Part shown: positions 1,769 to 15,686 of the stretch, one piece after another
Layout of the letters: each line of letters starts with the position of its first letter
Position numbering within the stretch: position 1 is the stretch's first letter
Assembly (NCBI GenBank): GCA_903934275.1
Contig: CAIZNF010000638.1
Span: forward strand, 1-16,509
Length of the DNA stretch: 16,509 nucleotides
Source of the DNA: an uncultured Nitrosomonadales bacterium
Lineage (GTDB): Bacteria > Pseudomonadota > Gammaproteobacteria > Burkholderiales > Gallionellaceae
Direction of reading: 5' to 3'
Position numbers and translations under genes: made by a program
Notes under the pieces: generated by a model
Seen by the model: the letters and a program-made list of their open reading frames with translations, nothing else
The model's database searches: none
What the model was told of the DNA's origin: nothing

Positions 1769-1897
1769 TCCGCAGATTACGCAGATTTCCGCAGATTAAA
1801 CAAAGAATTGCCCCGTTTAGCGTACTCACCTTCTGGGTGATACTGTAATCATCGATAACTTCATGAAAATCTGCGTTAATCTGCGTAATCTGCGGAT
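1769..1897. repeat. Inverted repeat of CGCAGATT units
   Basis: The left arm (1769-1800) holds three copies of CGCAGATT in tandem with slightly different spacers. The right arm (1866-1897) holds the same units in reverse complement, AATCTGCG. The outer TCCGCAGATTACGCAGATT matches exactly between arms. About 65 bases separate them. The transcript could fold into a long imperfect hairpin. The similarity of the upstream gene to integrases ends exactly at the left arm, so the element marks the truncation point. I believe CGCAGATT-type tandem units occur in intergenic DNA of many bacteria, but cannot name this family. Confidence 0.8.
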
Positions 1898-5215: not shown

Positions 5216-7441
5216 ATGAACAAAGACCAACTCAAAAAACTGGAAGCCGATCTGTGGAGCGCCGCCGACAAGCTGCGCGCCAATTCCGATCTGAAGTCCA
5301 GCGAATACGCTACACCTGTGCTGGGGCTGATTTTCCTCAAGTTTGCCGATAACAACTACCGCCGCCACGAAACTGAAATTCACGCCGAGTACACCAAACT
5401 CAAAGGCACCCGCCGCGAAAAGAAAATCTCTGATATCGCCATCGAGAAATGCGGGTTCTATCTGCCCGATCATGCGCGCTACGAGCATCTGCTGAATCTG
5501 CCGGAAGAGAAGAACATCGCCAAGGCGCTCAAGGAGGCGATGAAGGCCATTGAAGAATACAAGCCCGAACTCGAAGGCGTGTTGCCCAAGGACGAATATG
5601 CCGCGTTGACGCGCACCGACAAAACCATCCCGCAGCAGTTGCTGCGCACCTTCGCCGATATTCCGGCGGATACCACCGGCGACCTGTTCGGGCAGATTTA
5701 CGAATACTTCCTTTCCGAATTCGCGCGCAGCGAAGGCCAGAAGGGCGGCGAGTTTTTCACGCCGCGTTCCGTGGTGCGCCTGATGGTCGAGATCATCGAG
5801 CCGCACGGCGGAAAAGTGTTCGATCCCGCCTGCGGCTCTGGCGGCATGTTTGTGCAGTCTGCCCAGTTCATCGCGGAACACCGCAAGGAGCTGAAAGGCT
5901 CGGAAAGCGGCGTGTATGTCTGCGGCCAAGAAAAAACGCGCGACACCGTCAACCTCGCCAAGATGAACCTCGCGGTCAACGGCCTGCGCGGCGAAATCAA
6001 GCAGGCCAACACCTACTACGAAGACCCGTACCAGAGTTTTGGCGCATTCGATTACGTCCTCGCCAATCCCCCGTTCAACGTGGACGACGTGAGCCTCTCC
6101 AGCGTGGAGAAGGACAAGCGCTTCAACACCTACGGCATCCCGCGCAACAAATCGAAAGTGAAGAAAGAAGACCAAGGCAAGGAAACCGTACCCAACGGCA
6201 ACTACCTGTGGATCAACCTGTTCGCCACCTCGCTCAAAGCGCAAGGCCGCGCCGCGCTGGTCATGGCGAATTCCGCATCCGATGCGCGCCACTCCGAAGC
6301 CGACATCCGCAAGACGCTGATCGAGCAAAACCTCATCTACGCCATGCTGACGCTGCCCTCGAACATGTTCTACACCGTCATACTCCCGGCCACGCTGTGG
6401 TTCTTCGACAAGGCCAAGACCGACGACAAAATCCTGTTCATCGACGCGCGCAACATCTTCACCCAGATAGACCGCGTACACCGCGAGTTCAGCGAAGAGC
6501 ACATCCAGAACATCGCCATCATCAGCCAGTTGCACAAGGGGCGGCGCGAGAAATTCGTGCAGCTCATAGACCGCTATTTCGCGGCAGGCATGCAGCGACT
6601 GGTCGAGAACAAAGCCAACGTCGAACCCGTCTCCTCGCAACTGCTGGAAGTGCTGGACGACGCAGGCGGCAAACAGGCCGTGGGCGAATTGGTGCAGCAA
6701 TGGGCGGGGCTGGCCAAACTCAAGACCCGCTACGAGAAATATCTGCAACAACACTCGCCTGTCATTCCGAACACCTCAACTGTCATTCCGAGCGTATGTC
6801 CGTCTGTCATTCCGAACGTATGTGAGGAATCTTCCGCGCCATACAAGATTTCTCCCTCTGGTCGAAATGACAGTAGTGTCATTCCGAACGAACGTGAGGA
6901 ACCTTTAGCGCGTGGAAAATCCTCTATCACTGTCATCAATAAGGCGCAGCAGCAATTGCGCGAAGCGTTCGATCCTTTCTTCATCGCGCTGCACGAAGGT
7001 TTGAAGTACTTGGACAAGGTGGTGCATCAGCATGAAAAGCAAGAGGCTGAACAAGCAAAGGCTGAAGGTAAACGTGCCGCCACTGACCGCAAGACCAATG
7101 CGCTCAAGGGGGCGCTGGTGGAATTGCACAAGGAAGTGAAGAACGCTGAAATCTTTTACCAGCACATTCACTGGCTGCAGGAGCGTTTCCCCAAGGCGGA
7201 ATACGAAGATGTTACCGGCCTGTGTAAACTCGCCAGTCCAGTGGATTTACAGGAGCAGGATTATTCGTTGAATCCGGGTCGCTACGTCGGTGTGGTGGTC
7301 GAAGAGGATGGAAAAACAGAGGAGGATTTCATCTCTGACATGCTTTCGCTTGGTGGAGAATTGGCAACGCTCTCTGCCGCTTATTCGAAATTGGAGCCAG
7401 TGATTTTAAATAACCTGAAAGTGCTTGTCGGGGAAGTATGA
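5216..7441 (+). CDS. hsdM: Type I restriction-modification methyltransferase subunit HsdM
   Basis: Adenine-N6 methyltransferase subunit of a type I R-M complex; with HsdS it methylates host DNA, and with HsdR it forms the restriction enzyme. Residues about 3-130 form the HsdM N-terminal helical domain (LWSAADKLRANSDLKSSEY). The SAM-binding motif I is DPACGSGG at 203-210 and the catalytic motif IV is NPPF at 284-287. The C-terminal part is charged and helical. Residues about 515-572 do not look like HsdM: they read VIPNTSTVIPSVCPSVIPN and so on, because palindromic repeats are inserted in frame (6760 to about 6930). The 741-residue length is long, and falls to about 684 without the insert. The start ATG has only a weak ribosome site. 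The stop overlaps hsdS as ATGA. Confidence 0.95.
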   Translation: MNKDQLKKLEADLWSAADKLRANSDLKSSEYATPVLGLIFLKFADNNYRRHETEIHAEYTKLKGTRREKKISDIAIEKCGFYLPDHARYEHLLNLPEEKNIAKALKEAMKAIEEYKPELEGVLPKDEYAALTRTDKTIPQQLLRTFADIPADTTGDLFGQIYEYFLSEFARSEGQKGGEFFTPRSVVRLMVEIIEPHGGKVFDPACGSGGMFVQSAQFIAEHRKELKGSESGVYVCGQEKTRDTVNLAKMNLAVNGLRGEIKQANTYYEDPYQSFGAFDYVLANPPFNVDDVSLSSVEKDKRFNTYGIPRNKSKVKKEDQGKETVPNGNYLWINLFATSLKAQGRAALVMANSASDARHSEADIRKTLIEQNLIYAMLTLPSNMFYTVILPATLWFFDKAKTDDKILFIDARNIFTQIDRVHREFSEEHIQNIAIISQLHKGRREKFVQLIDRYFAAGMQRLVENKANVEPVSSQLLEVLDDAGGKQAVGELVQQWAGLAKLKTRYEKYLQQHSPVIPNTSTVIPSVCPSVIPNVCEESSAPYKISPSGRNDSSVIPNEREEPLARGKSSITVINKAQQQLREAFDPFFIALHEGLKYLDKVVHQHEKQEAEQAKAEGKRAATDRKTNALKGALVELHKEVKNAEIFYQHIHWLQERFPKAEYEDVTGLCKLASPVDLQEQDYSLNPGRYVGVVVEEDGKTEEDFISDMLSLGGELATLSAAYSKLEPVILNNLKVLVGEV
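6760..6924 (+). repeat. Palindromic repeat cluster inserted in frame within hsdM
   Basis: TGTCATTCCGA occurs at 6760, 6781, 6805 and (as GTGTCATTCCGA) at 6876. The third start opens a complete 68-bp element (6805-6872): a 29-base left arm ending GAGGAATCTT, an 11-base spacer, and a 28-base right arm AAGATTTCTCCC to TCGAAATGACA. The first two are short head fragments of 21 and 24 bases, and the last is a degenerate, incomplete copy. No stop is created and the frame downstream is kept, so the repeat is translated as part of HsdM. Confidence 0.92.
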
Positions 7442-8598
7442 CTGGATTTCATCAAATCAGCCTTGGCGACGTACTCACGCTTCAGCGTGGTTTCGATATT
7501 ACGAAGAGTGAGCAGACTGATGGCGAAATTCCGATTGTTTCTTCCTCTGGCATTTCGAGCTACCACAACAAATGGAAAGTAAAAGGGCCGGGAGTCGTTA
7601 TTGGTCGAAAGGGCACACTCGGCACTGTGCATTTTATCCCGTCAAATTTCTGGCCACACGACACCACGTTGTGGATTAAAGACTTCAAAGGGAACGATCC
7701 AAGATTCCTGAATTATTTTCTTCAAACCCTGAAGTTGGAAAATTTCGACGTTGGTGCATCCAATCCAACCCTGAACAGAAATCACGTTCACAAAATCAAA
7801 ATCATCTTTCCGAAAAAAGTAGAGACTCAGAAACGAATTGCGGCGACTCTTTCGGCGTATGACGAACTGATCGAAAACAACCAGCGGCGCATTGCGCTGC
7901 TGGAAAAAATGGCAGAGGAAATCTACCGCGAATGGTTTGTTCGTTTGCGCTTTCCCGGTCACGATAAGGTGAAGATGGTTAAAGGCGTGCCGCAGGGCTG
8001 GCGGCCTTCGTGTTTGGGAAGCGTCGCTAAATTCACGATGGGCCAGAGCCCGAGTTCAGAGTTTTACAATGAGCTTGGCAACGGTTTGCCTTTCCATCAA
8101 GGTGTCGGCACCTATGGTGAGCGATTTCCTCGAACCATCAACTATTGCAGCGAAGATGGTCGGCGAGCCCACAAAGGCGACATTATTTTCAGTGTGCGTG
8201 CTCCAGTGGGGCGTCTGAACATCGCGGATCGGGAAATGATTATTGGACGTGGTCTCTCAGCAATCAGACACAAGAAAGAGCGTAACCACTACTTGTATTA
8301 CCTGCTCAAAACGGCCTTCGTGAATGAAGATATTATCGGCAATGGTTCAATCTTCAATTCGGTTGGCAAGGACGAATTGGCGAAGTTTCCTGTTTTTGAG
8401 CCAGAACCAAGTCTTGTTGAAAAATTCGACGCGATAGCTTCAAAAATAGATGAGCAAATCACTGCGCTCATCCATGCGACTGAATGTTTGAAGTCGAGCC
8501 GCGATGCGCTTCTCCCCCGCCTCATCTCCGGCAAACTCTCCGTCGAAAATCTCGACATTCAATTCCCGCCCGGCATGATAGAAGATGCTCATGCCTAA
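7438..8598 (+). CDS. hsdS: Type I restriction-modification specificity subunit HsdS
   Basis: Sequence-recognition subunit of the R-M complex, 386 residues. It shows the usual plan: target-recognition domain 1 (about 1-130), a central conserved helix (about 132-170, KRIAATLSAYDELIENNQRR then EKMAEEIYREWF), target-recognition domain 2 (about 180-325), and a C-terminal conserved helix (about 328-370, KFDAIASKIDEQI then SRDALLPRLISGKLSVENL). Each recognition domain reads one half of a bipartite target, and the two helices set the spacing. The start overlaps the hsdM stop by four bases. The stop lies inside a relic of the hsdR start (ATGCCTAA). The target sequence cannot be read from the protein. 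Confidence 0.95.
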   Translation: MTGFHQISLGDVLTLQRGFDITKSEQTDGEIPIVSSSGISSYHNKWKVKGPGVVIGRKGTLGTVHFIPSNFWPHDTTLWIKDFKGNDPRFLNYFLQTLKLENFDVGASNPTLNRNHVHKIKIIFPKKVETQKRIAATLSAYDELIENNQRRIALLEKMAEEIYREWFVRLRFPGHDKVKMVKGVPQGWRPSCLGSVAKFTMGQSPSSEFYNELGNGLPFHQGVGTYGERFPRTINYCSEDGRRAHKGDIIFSVRAPVGRLNIADREMIIGRGLSAIRHKKERNHYLYYLLKTAFVNEDIIGNGSIFNSVGKDELAKFPVFEPEPSLVEKFDAIASKIDEQITALIHATECLKSSRDALLPRLISGKLSVENLDIQFPPGMIEDAHA

Positions 8599-8619
8599 CT
8601 TCATCGCCCGAGACAACCA
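8591..8619 (+). pseudogene. Relic of the hsdR 5' end overlapping the hsdS stop
   Basis: ATGCCTAACTTCAT at 8591-8604 is identical to the first 14 bases of hsdR at 10228-10241. The relic goes on as MPNFIARDN, against MPNFISEDQ in hsdR, and then loses similarity. Type I genes commonly overlap, and here the ATG overlaps the hsdS stop (TAA 8596-8598). The simplest reading is that hsdR once began here. A 14-bp target duplication is the alternative. Confidence 0.6.
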
Positions 8620-8628
8620 CAGCTCAAC

Positions 8629-8696
8629 TGTCATTCCGAACGCATGTGAGGAATCTTTGGTGCACTGCAAGATTTCTCCCTTCGGTCGAAATGACA
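8629..8696 (+). repeat. Palindromic repeat, complete copy after hsdS
   Basis: A 68-bp element with the same plan as the copy in hsdM: TGTCATTCCGAACG, left arm ending GAGGAATCTT, 11-base spacer, then AAGATTTCTCCC and TCGAAATGACA. A second partial end (GGTCGAAATGGCACCGG, about 8708-8724) follows directly. It lies at the left edge of the vapBC/GIY-YIG insertion. Confidence 0.92.
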
Positions 8697-8737
8697 CGGG
8701 GGTTGTCGGTCGAAATGGCACCGGAGCTGTGGCGGTC

Positions 8738-9160
8738 TTACAGTTCCCAAGGATTAAACACTTGCGGATACAGCGCGAAGTCCTGCACGTTGCGGGTGAC
8801 CACGGTGAGGCCGTGGCATTGGGCGGTGGCCATCAACAGGCCGTCCATCACCGGCATGGGTTGTCCGGCCAGTTCGGTGTGTGCGGCGATTTGCGCCCAG
8901 ACATGCAGCGCTGCGGCATCGAGCGGCAGGATGCGCCCGGCGAAGCGTTGTTCCACCTTGCCCAGCCATGCGGTGAGCTTCTGGCTGCGGCGCGAGTCGG
9001 CTTTGCGCAGCTTGAGGATGCCTTTTTCGATCTCGCCGAGGGTGATGACGCTGATGAACAGGCTGGCTTCGTCCTGTTCGTCCAGCCAAGTGATCACTTT
9101 AGTCGCGGGGGCTTTCTTGGCGTATTCGGAAAGCGCGCAGGTGTCCAGCAGCCAGCTCAT
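8738..9160 (-). CDS. vapC: VapC-type PIN-domain toxin
   Basis: A 140-residue PIN-domain RNase. The predicted metal-binding acids are Asp6 (WLLDTCALSEY), Glu43 (ITLGEIEKG), Asp106 (VMDGLLMATA) and probably Asp127 (TRNVQDF). VapC toxins cut tRNA or rRNA when free of antitoxin; the FitB-like C-terminus YPQVFNPWEL is typical. A longer frame is open to 9397, but the start at 9160 gives a proper PIN N-terminus and overlaps the antitoxin stop as ATGA, as is usual for these pairs. The pair runs opposite to the hsd genes and lies between hsdS and hsdR, so it appears to be an independent cargo module. Confidence 0.92.
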   Translation of the reverse strand: MSWLLDTCALSEYAKKAPATKVITWLDEQDEASLFISVITLGEIEKGILKLRKADSRRSQKLTAWLGKVEQRFAGRILPLDAAALHVWAQIAAHTELAGQPMPVMDGLLMATAQCHGLTVVTRNVQDFALYPQVFNPWEL

Positions 9161-9435
9161 AGTTCGATGTCGCGCCCGGTGTCGCGGCTGCGGGTAATGT
9201 TCAGGTCTTCGGCTGCGAGGTCGGGACGCAGCAGCGCGCTGGAGAGCTTGGTGCGGTGGCGGGTGAGCCGGGCGTACTCTTCCGCCGAGACCACCACTGC
9301 CGTGGGCTTGCCGTGGACGGTGACCGTTTGGGCATCGCCGCCCGCCGCCCGCTTGATAAGCTGGCTGAAGTTGCCCTTCGCTTCTTGCAGTTGCCAATGG
9401 CCCGTCGCTTCCTGTAGTTGTCGTTCGCTGTGCAT
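9157..9435 (-). CDS. Phd/YefM-family antitoxin partner of VapC
   Basis: A 92-residue antitoxin. The core LQEAKGNFSQLIKRAAGGD followed by TVTVHGKPTAVVVSAEEYARL is the Phd/YefM DNA-binding fold, in which dimers bind the operon's own promoter. The acidic C-terminal tail should block the toxin. A strong GGAGG ribosome site lies 5 bases before the ATG (positions 9441-9446). The N-terminus repeats LQEATGHWQLQEAKG, a small internal duplication that gives a slightly long leader before the usual domain start. Autoregulation is expected from the family; I see no clear operator. Confidence 0.88.
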   Translation of the reverse strand: MHSERQLQEATGHWQLQEAKGNFSQLIKRAAGGDAQTVTVHGKPTAVVVSAEEYARLTRHRTKLSSALLRPDLAAEDLNITRSRDTGRDIEL

Positions 9436-9528
9436 GATAGCCTCCGTTATTTCCGGCGTTAATTCTGGCCAGACTGGGCTGAATTTAGCACAAAGCTTGC
9501 GGGTTGGCTATGGGTAACTTCAATGGGC

Positions 9529-9595
9529 TGTCATTTCGACAGCATGGGGAAATCTTGCGGTGCGAGTAAGATTCCTCCCGTTGGTCAGAATGACA
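9529..9595 (-). repeat. Palindromic repeat, inverted copy before the GIY-YIG gene
   Basis: A 67-bp element: a 28-base arm from TGTCATTTCGAC to GAAATCTT, an 11-base spacer, and a 28-base arm from AAGATTCCTCCC to CAGAATGACA. Read on the minus strand it matches the copies at 6805 and 8629. It separates vapBC from the GIY-YIG gene and is opposite in orientation to the copy at 9974. Confidence 0.9.
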
Positions 9596-9651
9596 GCGAG
9601 GGGGCGATATGACAAGTTCGGGGTTTGCGCTTGGAATGAGAGGTGATACCG

Positions 9652-9966
9652 ATGGACAAGACCTACTACGTTTACCTGCTGACTAACTGGAACAACAAGG
9701 TGATGTATGTCGGTGTCACCAGTAATCTTGAACGCCGGGTCTATGAGCACAAGAACAAGCTGGTTGAAGGGTTTACCGAAAAGTACAACGTCAATAAACT
9801 GGTTTACTTTGAGACTACAAACGACGTGATGGCAGCGATTGAACGGGAGAAGCAGATCAAGAAGTGGCGGCGGGAGAAGAAAAATAATTTGATGATTGTG
9901 GCAAATCCAGAATGGAAGGATTTGAGTTTGGAGTGGGGGAAAGATTTCTCCTTTCAGTCGAAATGA
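9652..9966 (+). CDS. Small GIY-YIG endonuclease
   Basis: A 104-residue single-domain GIY-YIG protein of the YhbQ/UPF0213 type. The signature is YYVYLL at 5-10 and YVG at 19-21 within MYVGVTSNLERRVYEHK. The catalytic Arg is Arg28 and the metal-binding Glu is probably Glu66 in AIEREKQIKKW. GAGAGG 8 bases upstream supports ATG 9652 over the GTG at 9643. From codon 97 on (KDFSFQSK and the stop) the gene is made of a palindromic repeat end. Full repeats lie on both sides in inverted orientation. Family members nick or cut DNA; the substrate here is unknown. Confidence 0.9.
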   Translation: MDKTYYVYLLTNWNNKVMYVGVTSNLERRVYEHKNKLVEGFTEKYNVNKLVYFETTNDVMAAIEREKQIKKWRREKKNNLMIVANPEWKDLSLEWGKDFSFQSK

Positions 9967-10095
9967 CAAAGTTTGTCATTCCGAACGAATGTGAGGAATC
10001 TTGGTTTCACTACGCACTACAAGATTTCTCCCGGAGCCTGCCCTGAGCGAAGCCGAATGGGGTCGAAATGACAGGTAGGGTGGTTGAAATGACAG
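9940..10095 (+). repeat. Palindromic repeats after the GIY-YIG gene, one with a nested repeat
   Basis: A half element (about 9940-9967, AAGATTTCTCC to TCGAAATGACA) supplies the end of the GIY-YIG gene. A full element follows at 9974-10073, 100 bp long. Its spacer is 18 bases instead of 11, and its right arm is split by about 28 bases starting GGAGCCTGCCCTGAGCGAAG, which looks like another common intergenic repeat family. A last fragment, GGTTGAAATGACAGG, lies at about 10082-10096. Confidence 0.88.
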
Positions 10096-10140
10096 GTGAG
10101 GTGAGCTTGTACGTTTGATCGTTGCCTACAATTGTTCGTT

Positions 10141-10168
10141 AGTTAAGGGAAACGCGTTTCCCTTAACT
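10141..10168. promoter_or_regulatory. Perfect 28-bp palindrome upstream of hsdR
   Basis: AGTTAAGGGAAACG is followed at once by its exact reverse complement, giving 14-bp arms with no spacer. It ends 59 bases before the hsdR start. It could be a dimer operator controlling hsdR, a cruciform or a recombination site. It lacks a T-run, so it is not a standard terminator. The rest of 10096-10227 is AT-rich and may hold the hsdR promoter. Confidence 0.55.
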
Positions 10169-10227: not shown

Positions 10228-13200
10228 ATGCCTAACTTCATTTCCGAAGATCAGATCGAGCAGGCGCTGGTGCAGAAGCTCCAGCATCTGCACGGTTTCG
10301 ATGCGCTCGACTGCTACACGGAAAATGCGGAAGACTTGAACGACGGCTCAAACCGCGCCAACAAGCGTGATGTGATTCTGGTGGATCGGGTGCGGGAAGC
10401 CGCCATCCGTCTGAACCCGGACATCCCGCCTGCGGCCATTGAAGATGCGCTGGACAAGTTGCTCGACCGGCGGCAGGCGATGACGCTGATCGCCGCGAAC
10501 CGGGAAATCTATGGTCTGTTGCGTGACGGCATTCCGGTGGAATTTGACAACGCTCAGGGGGTGCGGCAACAGGAGCAGGTGCGGCTGCTGGATTTCAATG
10601 CGCCGGACGACAACCGCTACCTGGTCGTTACCCAGCTCTGGATCAAGGGCGAGCGCGGCTTCCGCCGCCCGGATGTGTTGCTTTACGTCAACGGCATTCC
10701 GCTGGTGTTTGTCGAGCTGAAAAACTCGAACGTGAAGTTGCGCAATGCCTACGACGATAACCTGACGACTTACAAGGCGGAGATTCCGCAGCTTTTTCTG
10801 ACCAATGCCTTTTGCGTGCTGTCCAATGCCATCGAGACCAAGGTGGGCAGCATCACGGCGGAGTGGGAGCATTTCTTCAACTGGCTGCGCGCGGATAACG
10901 AGAAGCAAAAGATCGACCGCGCCGCGATCCGCGAACAAGGCATCAGTTTGGAGGGCGTGATCGAAGGCTTGCTGCCAAGGCAGAGGCTGCTGGACTACAT
11001 GGAGAATTTCATTCTCTACTACAAGGAAAGTTCGAAAATCATCGCGCAGAACCATCAGTTCATCGGTGTGAACCGGGCTTATGAAGCTTTCCTAAAACGC
11101 GAGGAACTGGCGGGCAAGCTGGGCGTGTTCTGGCACACGCAGGGTTCGGGCAAGAGCTTCTCGATGATTTTTTATGCGCGCAAAATCTTCCGCAAGCAGA
11201 CGGGCAATTTCACCTTTGTAGTGGTGACCGACCGCGACGATCTGAACGGGCAGATTTACCGCAATTTTTTGAACACTCGCACGGTCAGCGAGGCGGAAGC
11301 CGCGCAGCCCAAGAACAGCGAGGAGATGCGCAAATTCTTAGGTCAGAACAAGCGGCTGGTGTTCACCCTGATTCAGAAATTCCGCTGGGACAAGGGGCGC
11401 GAGTATCCCGAGCTATCCGGGCGCAATGACATCATCGTGATCGTGGACGAGGCGCACCGCACGCAATACAAGTCGCTGGCGGAAAACATGCGCAAGGGTT
11501 TGCCCAGGGCGAACTATCTGGCGTTCACCGGCACGCCGCTGCTGGGGCGCGAGCGCAAGACCAATGCGTGGTTCGGCGGGTACGTTTCGGAATACAACTT
11601 CCAGCAGTCGATGGACGACGGCGCGACGGTGCCGCTGTTTTATGAGAAGCGCGTGCCGGAGGTGCTGATCCAGAACGAGGAGCTGAGCGAGGAGTTCTAC
11701 GAGATTCTGGAGAATGAAAATCTGGACGAGGCGCAGCAAGCCAAGCTGGAGCGGCGTTTTCCCAAAGAGGTTGAGGTCATCAAGCGCGACGACCGGCTGG
11801 AGAAGATTGCGCGGGACATCATCTATCACTTTCCCCGGCGCGGCTATCTGGGCAAGGGGCTATTTGTGGCGGTGGACAAATTCACCGCCGTGAAGATGTA
11901 CGACAAAGTACAAGATCAGTGGAAAGCAGCCTTGAAGGAACTGATCGGGCGTATCGGCAAAACGACAAACGACATCGAGAAGGCGCGGCTGAAGAAGATC
12001 GTCGAATACATGCGCGCAGTGGAAATGGCGGTGGTGGTCAGCGAGGACGCGGATGAGGAGACGAAGTTTGCTGCTCAAGGCTTGGCAATCAAGCCGCACC
12101 GCGCGCGCATGAACAAGCTGGACGCGCACGGCCACGACATCGAATACAACTTCAAAGACCCTGAAAGCTCTCTGCAATTGGTGTTCGTGTGCGCGATGTG
12201 GCTGACCGGCTTTGACGCGCCCACGCTTTCGACGCTGTATCTGGACAAGCCGATGCAGGGGCATACGCTGATGCAGACCATCGCCCGCGCCAACCGCGTC
12301 ACGTCGTGGAAGATCAACGGGGTGGAGAAGCGCAACGGCGAGATCGTGGATTACTACAACGTGTTCCGCAACATGAAACTGGCGCTGAAGGATTACGCGC
12401 AGGGCGGCGACGAAATTGATCCGCCGGTCAAGGAGAAGGCCGAGCTGTTCCGTTTGCTGGACGATGCGATTGAGCAGGGTTTGGCGTTCTGCCACGAGAA
12501 AGAGGTTGCGCTGCGCGAGGTGTTGGGCGGCGATGATGTATTCGAAAAATTGGGCCGCTTCAATATCTTTGCTAATGCCTTGCTGGCGAACGACGAATGG
12601 CGCAAAGGTTTCAACGTGTACGAGAACACCATCTCGTCGCTGTACGAGGCGTGCAAGCCAGAAGTGCTGGGGCGCGGCAAGGGGCGCGAGGTGGCGGCGT
12701 TCCAGTATTTGCGCGGGGTGATAGACAGCCTCATCGAGCAGAAGGACATCGACGCAATCAGCCTGAAGATTGCCGAGCTGCTGGACGAGAGCGTGGTGGT
12801 GAACGACGCGGAAGCATTCAAGGCGCGGCAATACGACGCGGAATACCAGATCATCCAAAAAGGCAAGACTTGGGACTTGAGTAAGATCAACTTCGACAAG
12901 CTGCGCGAGGAGTTCAAGCAGGCAACCTACAAGAACATCGAAATCGCCGACTTGCGCGCTTTCCTGCAATACAAGATCGAATTGATGCTGCGACAGAACG
13001 CGACGCGCACCGACTTTGCGCAGCGCTTGCAGGCGATCATTGATGCCTACAATTCAGGTGGCTCATCTACCGAAAATTCTTATGAAGAACTAATGAAGTT
13101 CACCGAGGATTTGCGCGCGGAGGAAGAGCGGCATATCCGCGAGGGGCTGACGGAGGATGAACTGGAAGTATTCGATCTGCTGAAGAAAGACAAGATGACG

Positions 13201-13455
13201 CAGGAGGAAACGCAGAAAGTCAGGCTCGCGGCCAAGTCGCTGCTGCATCGCTTGCTGGAAGAGCAACCCAAGGTACTGGTGCAGGATTGGTACAAGGATA
13301 CACAGACCCAGAAGCAGGTGCGTTCCGCTGTGGAAAAAGTGTTGGACAGCAACCTGCCGGAAAGCTACGACCGCGTGCTGTTCCGCGAGAAATGCGACAA
13401 CGTGTTTTACCTGATGCTCGACTATGCGAGCCATGGCAGGAAGTGGGCGGCTTGA
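10228..13455 (+). CDS. hsdR: Type I restriction endonuclease subunit HsdR
   Basis: Motor and nuclease subunit, 1075 residues, a normal length. It translocates DNA using ATP and cuts unmethylated DNA far from the target. The N-terminal PD-(D/E)xK nuclease shows Asp149, then Glu163-x-Lys165 (RRPDVLLYV, FVELKNS). The superfamily 2 helicase shows Walker A TQGSGKS at 304-310, DEAH at 407-410, FTGTP at 433-437 and motif VI QTIARANR at 683-690. The C-terminal helical part contacts HsdM-HsdS. No stop or frameshift is seen. No ribosome site is visible before the ATG, which fits a gene that formerly depended on coupling to hsdS; it is now separated from hsdS by about 1.6 kb of cargo. Confidence 0.97.
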   Translation: MPNFISEDQIEQALVQKLQHLHGFDALDCYTENAEDLNDGSNRANKRDVILVDRVREAAIRLNPDIPPAAIEDALDKLLDRRQAMTLIAANREIYGLLRDGIPVEFDNAQGVRQQEQVRLLDFNAPDDNRYLVVTQLWIKGERGFRRPDVLLYVNGIPLVFVELKNSNVKLRNAYDDNLTTYKAEIPQLFLTNAFCVLSNAIETKVGSITAEWEHFFNWLRADNEKQKIDRAAIREQGISLEGVIEGLLPRQRLLDYMENFILYYKESSKIIAQNHQFIGVNRAYEAFLKREELAGKLGVFWHTQGSGKSFSMIFYARKIFRKQTGNFTFVVVTDRDDLNGQIYRNFLNTRTVSEAEAAQPKNSEEMRKFLGQNKRLVFTLIQKFRWDKGREYPELSGRNDIIVIVDEAHRTQYKSLAENMRKGLPRANYLAFTGTPLLGRERKTNAWFGGYVSEYNFQQSMDDGATVPLFYEKRVPEVLIQNEELSEEFYEILENENLDEAQQAKLERRFPKEVEVIKRDDRLEKIARDIIYHFPRRGYLGKGLFVAVDKFTAVKMYDKVQDQWKAALKELIGRIGKTTNDIEKARLKKIVEYMRAVEMAVVVSEDADEETKFAAQGLAIKPHRARMNKLDAHGHDIEYNFKDPESSLQLVFVCAMWLTGFDAPTLSTLYLDKPMQGHTLMQTIARANRVTSWKINGVEKRNGEIVDYYNVFRNMKLALKDYAQGGDEIDPPVKEKAELFRLLDDAIEQGLAFCHEKEVALREVLGGDDVFEKLGRFNIFANALLANDEWRKGFNVYENTISSLYEACKPEVLGRGKGREVAAFQYLRGVIDSLIEQKDIDAISLKIAELLDESVVVNDAEAFKARQYDAEYQIIQKGKTWDLSKINFDKLREEFKQATYKNIEIADLRAFLQYKIELMLRQNATRTDFAQRLQAIIDAYNSGGSSTENSYEELMKFTEDLRAEEERHIREGLTEDELEVFDLLKKDKMTQEETQKVRLAAKSLLHRLLEEQPKVLVQDWYKDTQTQKQVRSAVEKVLDSNLPESYDRVLFREKCDNVFYLMLDYASHGRKWAA

Positions 13456-13496: not shown

Positions 13497-13916
13497 ATGA
13501 GCGAAAAATCTGACAACCCCATTGCACTGACCGAAGCGCCCAGCGGTTACGACGATTGGCTGGTCGATCTAAATACACGCATCCACACCACCCAACAGCG
13601 CGCGGCACTGGCAGTGAACCGCGAACGGATGCTGCTCTACTGGCAGGTCAGGCGCAACATTTTGGAACGGCAGGCCAAACAGGGCTGGGGTGCAAAAGTG
13701 ATAGAACGGCTGTCGCATGACCTACGCACCGCCTTTCCTGATATGAAGGGATTTTTGCCGCGCAATCTCAAATACATGCGCGCCTTTGCCAAATCATGGC
13801 CGAACAACGAATTTGCGCAAGCGGTGCTTGCACAATTGCCTTGGTGTCATCAACTGGCCCTGCTGGACAAGTTGCGCTCAAAGGATGAGCGCCGCACTTG
13901 GCACAACAAGGAATGA
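13497..13916 (+). pseudogene. Truncated DUF1016 (YhcG-type) protein
   Basis: 139 codons that match the N-terminal helical domain of DUF1016/YhcG proteins: NRERMLLYWQVRRNILERQAKQGWGAKVIERLS, FPDMKGFLPRNLKYMRAFA and LPWCHQLALLDKLRSKDER. Full family members are about 330-370 residues and carry a C-terminal PD-(D/E)xK nuclease domain, which is missing here. Similarity ends near 13890, then a stop follows at once. Such genes often sit beside type I R-M loci. The start is 41 bases after hsdR with a weak ribosome site, so the stump is probably cotranscribed. A small stable product cannot be excluded, but I favour a broken gene. Confidence 0.8.
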
Positions 13917-14646: not shown

Positions 14647-14772
14647 TCTTTTCCGCGCAGGCGGAAATCCAACCAAAAGAATATTTTTCGCATAGCGAGA
14701 CAACATCTGAATTTATCCGCTACATGGGCTTCTTTAGTATTACTGGATTCCCGCCTGCGCGGGAATGACAAA
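14647..14772. repeat. Inverted pair of dRS3-like repeats
   Basis: The right unit (14747-14766) is ATTCCCGCCTGCGCGGGAAT, which fits the ATTCCC-N8-GGGAAT form of the Neisseria dRS3 repeat, and is followed by GACAAA. The left unit (about 14649-14670, TTTCCGCGCAGGCGGAAATCC) is a diverged copy in the opposite direction. Together they frame a small element filling most of the space between tsaC and hemF. Confidence 0.75.
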
Positions 14773-14786
14773 TCACCGGAGTAACA

Positions 14787-15686
14787 ATGAATAGCATAGC
14801 CGTAAAAAAATACCTGATCGAGCTGCAAGACCGTATTGTCACACGGCTGGAGCAAGTAGATGGCGGGAAATTCCTCCGCGACAACTGGAATAGGCCGGAT
14901 GGTGGGGGCGGCATCAGTTGCATCCTGGAAGACGGCAACGTACTGGAGCGCGGCGGCGTGGCGTTTTCGCATGTGACAGGCGACAGGATGCCGCCTTCCG
15001 CGACGGCGCATCGCCCGGAACTGGCAGGCCGCCGCTGGGAGGCGCTGGGCGTGTCTCTGGTGCTGCACCCGCGCAACCCCTACGCGCCCACCGCCCATGC
15101 CAACGTGCGCATGTTCGTCGCGATGAAGGACGGGGAAGCGCCGGTGTTCTGGTTCGGCGGCAGCATGGATCTGACGCCGTATTACGGCTTCGAGGAAGAC
15201 GCGGTGCATTTTCACCAAACCTGCAAGAATTCGCTCGCGCCGTTTGGCGATGGCCTGTACACAAAATACAAAAAATGGTGCGACGAATATTTTTATCTCA
15301 AGCACCGCAATGAGCAGCGCGGCATCGGCGGCATATTTTTCGATGACCTGAGCGAACCGGATTTTGCTACGGCGTTTGCCATCCAGCAAAGCGCCGGTGA
15401 TCATTTTCTGTCAGCGTATATTCCAATTCTGGAACGCCGCATGAACACACCCTACGGCGAGCGCGAACGCGATTTTCAGCTATACCGGCGCGGCCGCTAT
15501 GTGGAATTCAACCTGGTAATCGACCGCGGCACCATTTTCGGCCTGCAAACCAACGGTCGCACCGAGTCCATCCTGATGTCCATGCCGCCACTGGTGAAAT
15601 GGCGCTATGACTGGCATCCCGATCAAGGCACGCCTGAGGCAGAGTTATATAAAAAGTTTCTGCTGCCGAGGGATTGGGTTTTGTGA
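14787..15686 (+). CDS. hemF: Oxygen-dependent coproporphyrinogen III oxidase
   Basis: Late heme synthesis: oxidative decarboxylation of coproporphyrinogen III to protoporphyrinogen IX with O2, in the cytoplasm as a homodimer. The 299 residues match E. coli HemF. The four conserved histidines are present at 94, 104, 143 and 173 ([38 protein letters not shown]). The family signature [16 protein letters not shown] is at 123-138. The C-terminus [15 protein letters not shown] and DWVL is complete. CCGGAG lies 6 bases before the ATG. A single repeat pair separates it from tsaC. It implies growth with oxygen. Confidence 0.97.

What the first reader, a model, noticed from the sequence alone, without database searches (positions are those of the whole stretch)
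6760..6930. Palindromic repeat cluster translated inside HsdM
One full 68-bp element and three partial copies sit in frame in hsdM, adding about 55 residues of VIPN-type sequence at about 515-572. The frame and the downstream HsdM sequence are intact. This is like the in-protein palindromic elements known from Rickettsia, here in an R-M methyltransferase. It may mark a tolerant linker, or alter activity or phase.
Basis: partly seen in the sequence, partly recalled or inferred. Interest (0 to 1): 0.72.

Follow-up and report, generated by a model that had tools for sequence, protein, structure and literature searches.

The report
Translated palindromic repeats in HsdM loop
A bacterial DNA-methylating enzyme has a loop into which palindromic DNA repeats have been inserted and translated as extra protein; relatives fill the same loop with other such repeats, so it looks like a tolerant landing place that may help trace how these genes move between species.

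Summary
Confirmed. Four in-phase TGTCATTCCGA arms (one full 68-bp element, three partial copies) lie in an open 741-aa hsdM at 6760-6914. The protein is 52 residues longer than the 689-aa form of close homologues. In an AlphaFold2 model this stretch (515-566) has pLDDT under 50 and joins two helices of an arm that solved HsdMs seem to lack.

Its contents are not one family: several unrelated palindromic inserts were seen at DNA level. (2) Plain and element-bearing linkers alternate at least 10 times on an HsdM tree, and element-bearing ones share flanking residues, which points to exchange by recombination. (3) By an arm pattern, the element is confined to the R-M contig in a Nitrotoga genome and to hsdM in a Methylobacter; in the window's genome this subfamily occurs only in the R-M contig. 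So it probably arrived with the genes. (4) The inserted peptide evolves with little constraint.

Best explanation: a tolerant loop that acts as a sink for in-frame palindromic repeats, spread with a mobile R-M gene. It works like Rickettsia palindromic elements and intragenic REPs. No support for phase variation or an RNA role.

The parts
5216..7441 (+). hsdM, type I R-M methyltransferase subunit, 741 aa, open
   Evidence: N284 P285 P286 F287 invariant in the 65-row alignment
6760..6780 (+). partial element copy, start of the left arm (21-nt unit)
6781..6804 (+). partial element copy, start of the left arm (24-nt unit)
6805..6872 (+). full 68-bp palindromic element, translated VIPNVCEESSAPYKISPSGRND
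6877..6914 (+). partial element copy (left arm and part of the centre)
6758..6913 (+). codons 515-566: low-confidence (pLDDT under 50) stretch of the model, the inserted segment
7438..8598 (+). hsdS
8629..8696 (+). intergenic copy of the same element after hsdS; a copy in the same place in Nitrotoga L030 (9445)
9529..9596 (+). intergenic copy between the Phd/YefM and GIY-YIG genes; an arm in the same place in L030 (10315)
9941..10094 (+). cluster of arms at the 3' end of the GIY-YIG gene and upstream of hsdR
10228..13455 (+). hsdR

Best explanation
The segment is a cluster of REP-type palindromic elements inserted in frame into the tip loop of a helical arm of HsdM. The loop (between helices 499-516 and 565-617) is flexible and tolerant, so in-frame inserts are not purged, and it has collected translated palindromic inserts of several unrelated families in different bacteria. 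The version here (flanks EKYLQQ ... INAI or a variant) probably arose once, in an element-rich background such as Nitrosomonas, and then spread by horizontal transfer of the R-M cassette and by short-tract recombination between nearly identical hsdM alleles. Shown: in-frame insert, recurrent site, scattered distribution on the gene tree, weak constraint on the peptide, confinement of this subfamily to the R-M contig here. Inferred: what moved the element, the Nitrosomonas-like origin, recombination as the route, and that the enzyme stays active.
For: Model: pLDDT under 50 over 515-566 (block means 24-32 in 521-560) between confident helices. Insertions of 8 aa or more: 86 of 363 rows in the linker, 7 of 363 elsewhere; by source 35 of 120, 13 of 118 and 24 of 62 proteins, 13 of 62 loci, and the window. 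In 63 genes (62 of the 80 loci and the window) 20 have a linker of 19 codons or more; 7 of those 20 and 0 of the other 43 carry a strong inverted repeat there; density is 6 times that of the rest of the gene (7 against 22 repeats, binomial p 4e-4). Unrelated inserts with DNA evidence: TGTCATTCCGA; GGGCGGGTTYNRAACCCGCCC (L045; 11 further matches in C38 and 1 in C6 of its genome); GCAGGCTTCCAGCCTGC (L039; 2 further partial matches in its genome); GTAGGAGCGG..CCGCTCCTAC (L059, palindromic); the Cylindrospermum insert (L067, palindromic, with similar sequence in its flank). Linker state on linker-free trees: 19 changes, at least 11 forced by starred branches (183 rows); 14, at least 10 forced (37 rows chosen by me). 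Flank codons follow linker type: at nt 1500-1536 L074 is 97% identical to L030 and 78% to L027, while in the 60 nt before it is 88% and 93%. Arms by genome: Nitrotoga 6, all in the R-M contig; Methylobacter of L074 1, which is the hsdM copy; Nitrosomonas 53, 66, 24 and 8; 0 in G003 and G014 (plain linkers) and G002 (another insert). N/S 2.07 in the insert; 3.04 if changes were random and unweighted; 0.20 and 0.26 in the flanking gene.
Against: N/S rests on 8 short sequences, and the palindrome itself limits changes. The window's genome holds 14 further arms of a different ~83-bp subfamily, so the wider family is not absent; one of 40 relatives, G038 of the same genus, has one exact arm of the strict pattern. 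The genome is a 722-contig draft (5.7% contamination) in which repeats end contigs, so copies may be missed. No mover was identified. Independent insertions with similar flanks are not formally excluded. All three protein searches were seeded with insert-bearing proteins, and the 80 loci kept of 214 were ranked against the window's protein (search peptides lay outside the linker), which can inflate the share of inserts. 31 of 105 long linkers match no repeat type. LAPG-type and L059 inserts are single-copy in their genomes.
Confidence: 0.75

Rival explanations
1. Repeated independent transposition: the loop's DNA is a preferred target and elements insert anew each time; the scatter on the tree reflects many gains and losses.
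For: Several unrelated inserts at one site; many state changes.
Against: Element-bearing versions share flanking residues outside the element (EKYLQQ, INAI) that the plain form lacks. By the arm pattern the element is not found elsewhere in two carrier genomes, Nitrotoga outside the R-M contig and the Methylobacter of L074, so no local source is seen. No full arm lies within the fetched flanks of the 5 Y1 transposase genes.
Confidence: 0.15
2. The insert is functional and selected: a flexible tip that changes assembly or escape from anti-restriction proteins, or an mRNA hairpin that tunes the HsdM:HsdS ratio.
For: Recurrence at one site in distant bacteria and retention in an intact operon; the loop lies in an arm outside the conserved core.
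Against: Weak constraint on the peptide; 85 of the 120 closest relatives lack it; RNA folding z-score -1.35, 17 of 200 shuffles fold as well.
Confidence: 0.08
3. An ordinary hypervariable protein loop; the resemblance to DNA repeats is incidental.
For: 31 of 105 unique linkers of 19 residues or more match no repeat type; 25 of these come from the search with the Cylindrospermum protein.
Against: In the window the same DNA also occurs between genes at 65-68 bp; the L045 and L039 inserts recur, at least in part, in their own genomes.
Confidence: 0.02

Closest known systems
Rickettsia palindromic elements (RPE), above all RPE-4/6/7
   Same: Palindromic repeats inside ORFs, translated without breaking the frame; RPE-4/6/7 are rich in ATGAC, which also ends the element here (PMC3767692, passages seen)
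   Different: RPEs are given as 100-150 bp and recur in many unrelated genes of a genome; here the element is 66-68 bp, in one gene and its locus, and seems to travel with that gene
Intragenic REPs of the CGTC/GTAG super-families (PMC3733652; section 15 and passages seen)
   Same: Short palindromic arms paired in opposite orientation; intragenic dimers or groups encode 20-30 aa, clusters 43-82 aa; the authors consider neutrality in flexible linkers; CGTC repeats lack a dedicated transposase; two Xanthomonas recB genes carry different REPs at about the same site
   Different: Arms start TGTC, not CGTC or GTAG. The main text has no match for hsd, restriction or methyl, and in what I saw no single loop is used by many families and no repeat-bearing linker is exchanged between alleles
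MITEs fused in frame to ORFs (review PMC10969869, passages seen)
   Same: Short non-autonomous repeats making in-frame fusions
   Different: Target duplications or a related IS were not tested here

Membership tests
CGTC-tagged REP super-family | CGTC tetranucleotide at one end | tested here: not met
   13 of 13 GTCATT arms in 6700-10150 are preceded by T
CGTC-tagged REP super-family | Short palindromic arms, often dimers in opposite orientation | tested here: met
CGTC-tagged REP super-family | Copies spread through the genome | tested here: not met
   Window genome: this subfamily only in C638 (draft assembly); three Nitrosomonas genomes have 53, 66 and 24 arms, on many contigs in the listed part
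CGTC-tagged REP super-family | Not flanked by tyrosine transposase genes | tested here: met
   5 Y1_Tnp matches; no full arm pattern in their loci of 2.0-3.3 kb, only 6 bare GTCATT hexamers (one search had looked around the wrong frame in four of the five)
GTAG REP/RAYT (REPIN) | GTAG tag | tested here: not met
   13 of 13 arms begin TGTC
Rickettsia palindromic elements | Host is Rickettsia or Wolbachia | tested here: not met
Rickettsia palindromic elements | In-frame insertion in an ORF that stays functional | tested here: inconclusive
   Frame and operon intact; function not testable
Type I HsdM | HsdM_N and N6_Mtase domains, hsdS and hsdR beside it | tested here: met
Type I HsdM | NCBIfam equivalog TIGR00497 cut-off | tested here: not met
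   118 bits against 242.75: a longer subfamily

The most novel reading that the evidence does not exclude
The tip loop of this HsdM arm is a diversity site under selection: bacteria use whatever palindromic repeats pass by as raw material to change its length and sequence, for instance to escape anti-restriction proteins, and repeat-bearing and plain linkers are kept as a trans-species polymorphism exchanged by recombination.
Probability: 0.1. Interest if true: 0.8.

Novelty: new variant of a known kind. Interest (0 to 1): 0.52.

Why it matters
Protein-coding palindromes are known from Rickettsia and from scattered REP-tagged genes. Here one loop of one enzyme family has received such elements from several unrelated families in distant bacteria. 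That makes it a natural replicate experiment for how selfish repeats become protein, with element-free alleles as controls. The linker may also mark the movement of R-M genes: an element foreign to the rest of a genome points to an imported hsdM.

Tried and rejected
Phase variation: rejected, as all unit spacings are multiples of 3. mRNA hairpin: weak (z -1.35). A Y1/RAYT transposase as mover: no support; one search took the longest frame of each locus, which was the transposase only in L023, so I checked the whole loci (no full arm; six bare GTCATT hexamers). Plasmid source: no match for 6755-6940. Misbinned contig: purD occurs once in the genome, in this contig, and GC is even; not proof. 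Two-half mosaic HsdM: identity falls in the last ~50 residues, not at the linker edges alone. A strict arm pattern (8-nt spacer) made the element look rare everywhere; a wider spacer showed dispersed copies in Nitrosomonas. L099 was first noted as an insert of the same loop; its insert lies after residue 483, in a neighbouring loop of the arm. LAPG-type inserts (L028, L034) and the L059 insert occur once in their own genomes, so that they are repeats there is not shown. Peptide types known only from protein rows (GRSPLR, AIHELPL, HPQP, LERGGG, KSPLERG, KAFGDD) were called repeat translations from recall. The shuffle control is not usable because I picked the rows. A phylum sample gave a close hit in only 3 of 398 genomes, the window's own among them, too few for a survey. 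The first codon count was off by one for L031 and was redone. Rows dropped: 18 of the 80 loci were left out (some truncated or frameshifted, the others to limit numbers); none of the 17 of them that can be read there shows a long linker, so leaving them out raises the share of inserts. No paper search named this finding, but listings alone were seen for most papers.

Full report
Observation. The window holds a type I R-M locus (hsdM 5216-7441, hsdS 7438-8598, a PIN/Phd pair, a GIY-YIG gene, hsdR 10228-13455) downstream of purD. In hsdM the 11-mer TGTCATTCCGA occurs at 6760, 6781, 6805 and 6877, all in one codon phase; 2000 codon shuffles gave 0.0005 on average. The copy at 6805-6872 is complete: left arm, centre, inverted right arm. 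Four of the six frames of the element are open. Further copies lie between the genes of the same locus (8629, 9529, 9941-10094). Nitrotoga locus L030 has copies or arms in the same four places.

Homologues. Of the 120 best proteins, 85 have no insert, 31 have this element and 4 another insert at the same place. The usual plain linker reads AQYQEKHADETAVDKK; the element-bearing one of the window's nearest carriers reads EKYLQQ, the element in one or more copies, then INAI or a variant; Nitrosomonas carriers also have YLQQ before the element. Residues 1-510 are up to 97% identical between the two kinds.

One loop, many repeats. I aligned 363 HsdMs (300 proteins, 62 of the 80 loci, and the window). 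Extra stretches of 8 residues or more lie in this linker in 86 rows and elsewhere in 7 rows. Among 105 unique linkers of 19 residues or more, 74 fall into 13 peptide types and 31 do not. For several types I could see the DNA: strong palindromes in L045, L059 and L067, similar sequence in the flank of L067, and further matches in the genome for L045 (12 outside hsdM) and L039 (2, partial). For the types seen only as peptides, that they are repeat translations is recalled, not tested. Across 63 genes inverted repeats are six times denser in the linker than in the rest of hsdM (7 in 6,537 nt, 22 in 125,388 nt). Sampling is not free of bias: the protein searches were seeded with insert-bearing proteins, and the 80 loci were the best of 214 against the window's protein.

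How the linker moves. On a tree made without the linker columns the element state changes 19 times, at least 11 forced by starred branches (183 rows); in a 37-row careful tree 14 times, at least 10 forced (rows picked by me). P0006/P0025, P0005/P0014 and P0012/P0026 are starred sister pairs with different linkers. The shared flank residues, and at DNA level the change of L074 from closer to L027 (93% against 88%) to closer to L030 (97% against 78%) at the linker edge (36 nt only), point to exchange of a short tract. With the pattern GTCATTYCGAN{5,10}GRGRAATC Nitrotoga has 6 arms, all in the R-M contig; the Methylobacter of L074 has 1, the hsdM copy; the window's genome has 7 in this contig plus 14 of a different ~83-bp subfamily, many at contig ends; three Nitrosomonas genomes have 53, 66 and 24 arms and a fourth 8, of which 5 in the R-M contig; G003 and G014 (plain linkers) and G002 (another insert) have 0. 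With the strict pattern one exact arm was seen in a congener, G038. So the element most likely came with the R-M genes, and a Nitrosomonas-like source is plausible.

Literature. PMC3733652 (section 15 and passages) describes intragenic REPs, the idea of neutral insertion in flexible linkers, and two Xanthomonas recB genes with different REPs at about the same site; its main text has no match for hsd, restriction or methyl. PMC3767692 and PMC10969869 (passages) describe RPEs. Searches combining HsdM, restriction-modification or DNA methyltransferase with palindromic, intragenic or inserted repeats gave listings with no title or abstract start on this; the library lacks most subscription journals.

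Verdict. A real, in-frame cluster of REP-like elements in HsdM; the mechanism is most likely tolerance of a flexible tip loop plus horizontal spread of the gene. The kind is known; the convergence of unrelated repeats on one loop and the switching of linker alleles are what I did not find described.

Noticed in passing
window 9941-9968: The right arm of an element supplies the last residues and the TGA stop of the GIY-YIG ORF (KDFSFQSK*); the Nitrotoga locus L030 has an arm in the same place (10757).
   Followed up: partly
window 8738-9435: PIN-domain and Phd/YefM-like pair between hsdS and hsdR; relatives (PIN 95% and 91%, Phd 97% and 82%) lie downstream of hsdM in L027 (Sulfuriferula) and L030 (Nitrotoga); 6 of 80 loci have both.
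   Followed up: partly
window 13497-13916: Short ORF with only a DUF1016 N-terminal domain after hsdR, possibly a truncated gene.
   Followed up: no
window 14744-14770: Another palindromic repeat arm (TGGATTCCCGCCTGCGCGGGAATGACA) upstream of the ORF at 14787.
   Followed up: no
window 1769-1896: 29-bp inverted repeat, 93% complementary, 70 nt apart (TCCGCAGATTACGCAGATT...).
   Followed up: no
G000 contigs C60, C119, C154, C157, C208, C261, C287, C337, C373, C710: A different ~83-bp palindrome (GTCATTTCGAGCTCCGCGAGAAATC ... GATTCCTCACTTCGTTCGGAATGAC), often at contig ends, probably breaking the assembly.
   Followed up: partly
L067 7576-7713: Cylindrospermum hsdM linker holds a perfect 63-nt direct duplication within its insert.
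   Followed up: no
L099 7458-7548: A long palindromic insert in a neighbouring loop of the same HsdM arm (after window residue 483), with similar sequences elsewhere in the locus.
   Followed up: partly
window 7286-7438: The last ~50 residues of HsdM, which abut hsdS, are far more variable than the rest (35-62% identity against 79-100% in the other blocks outside the linker).
   Followed up: no
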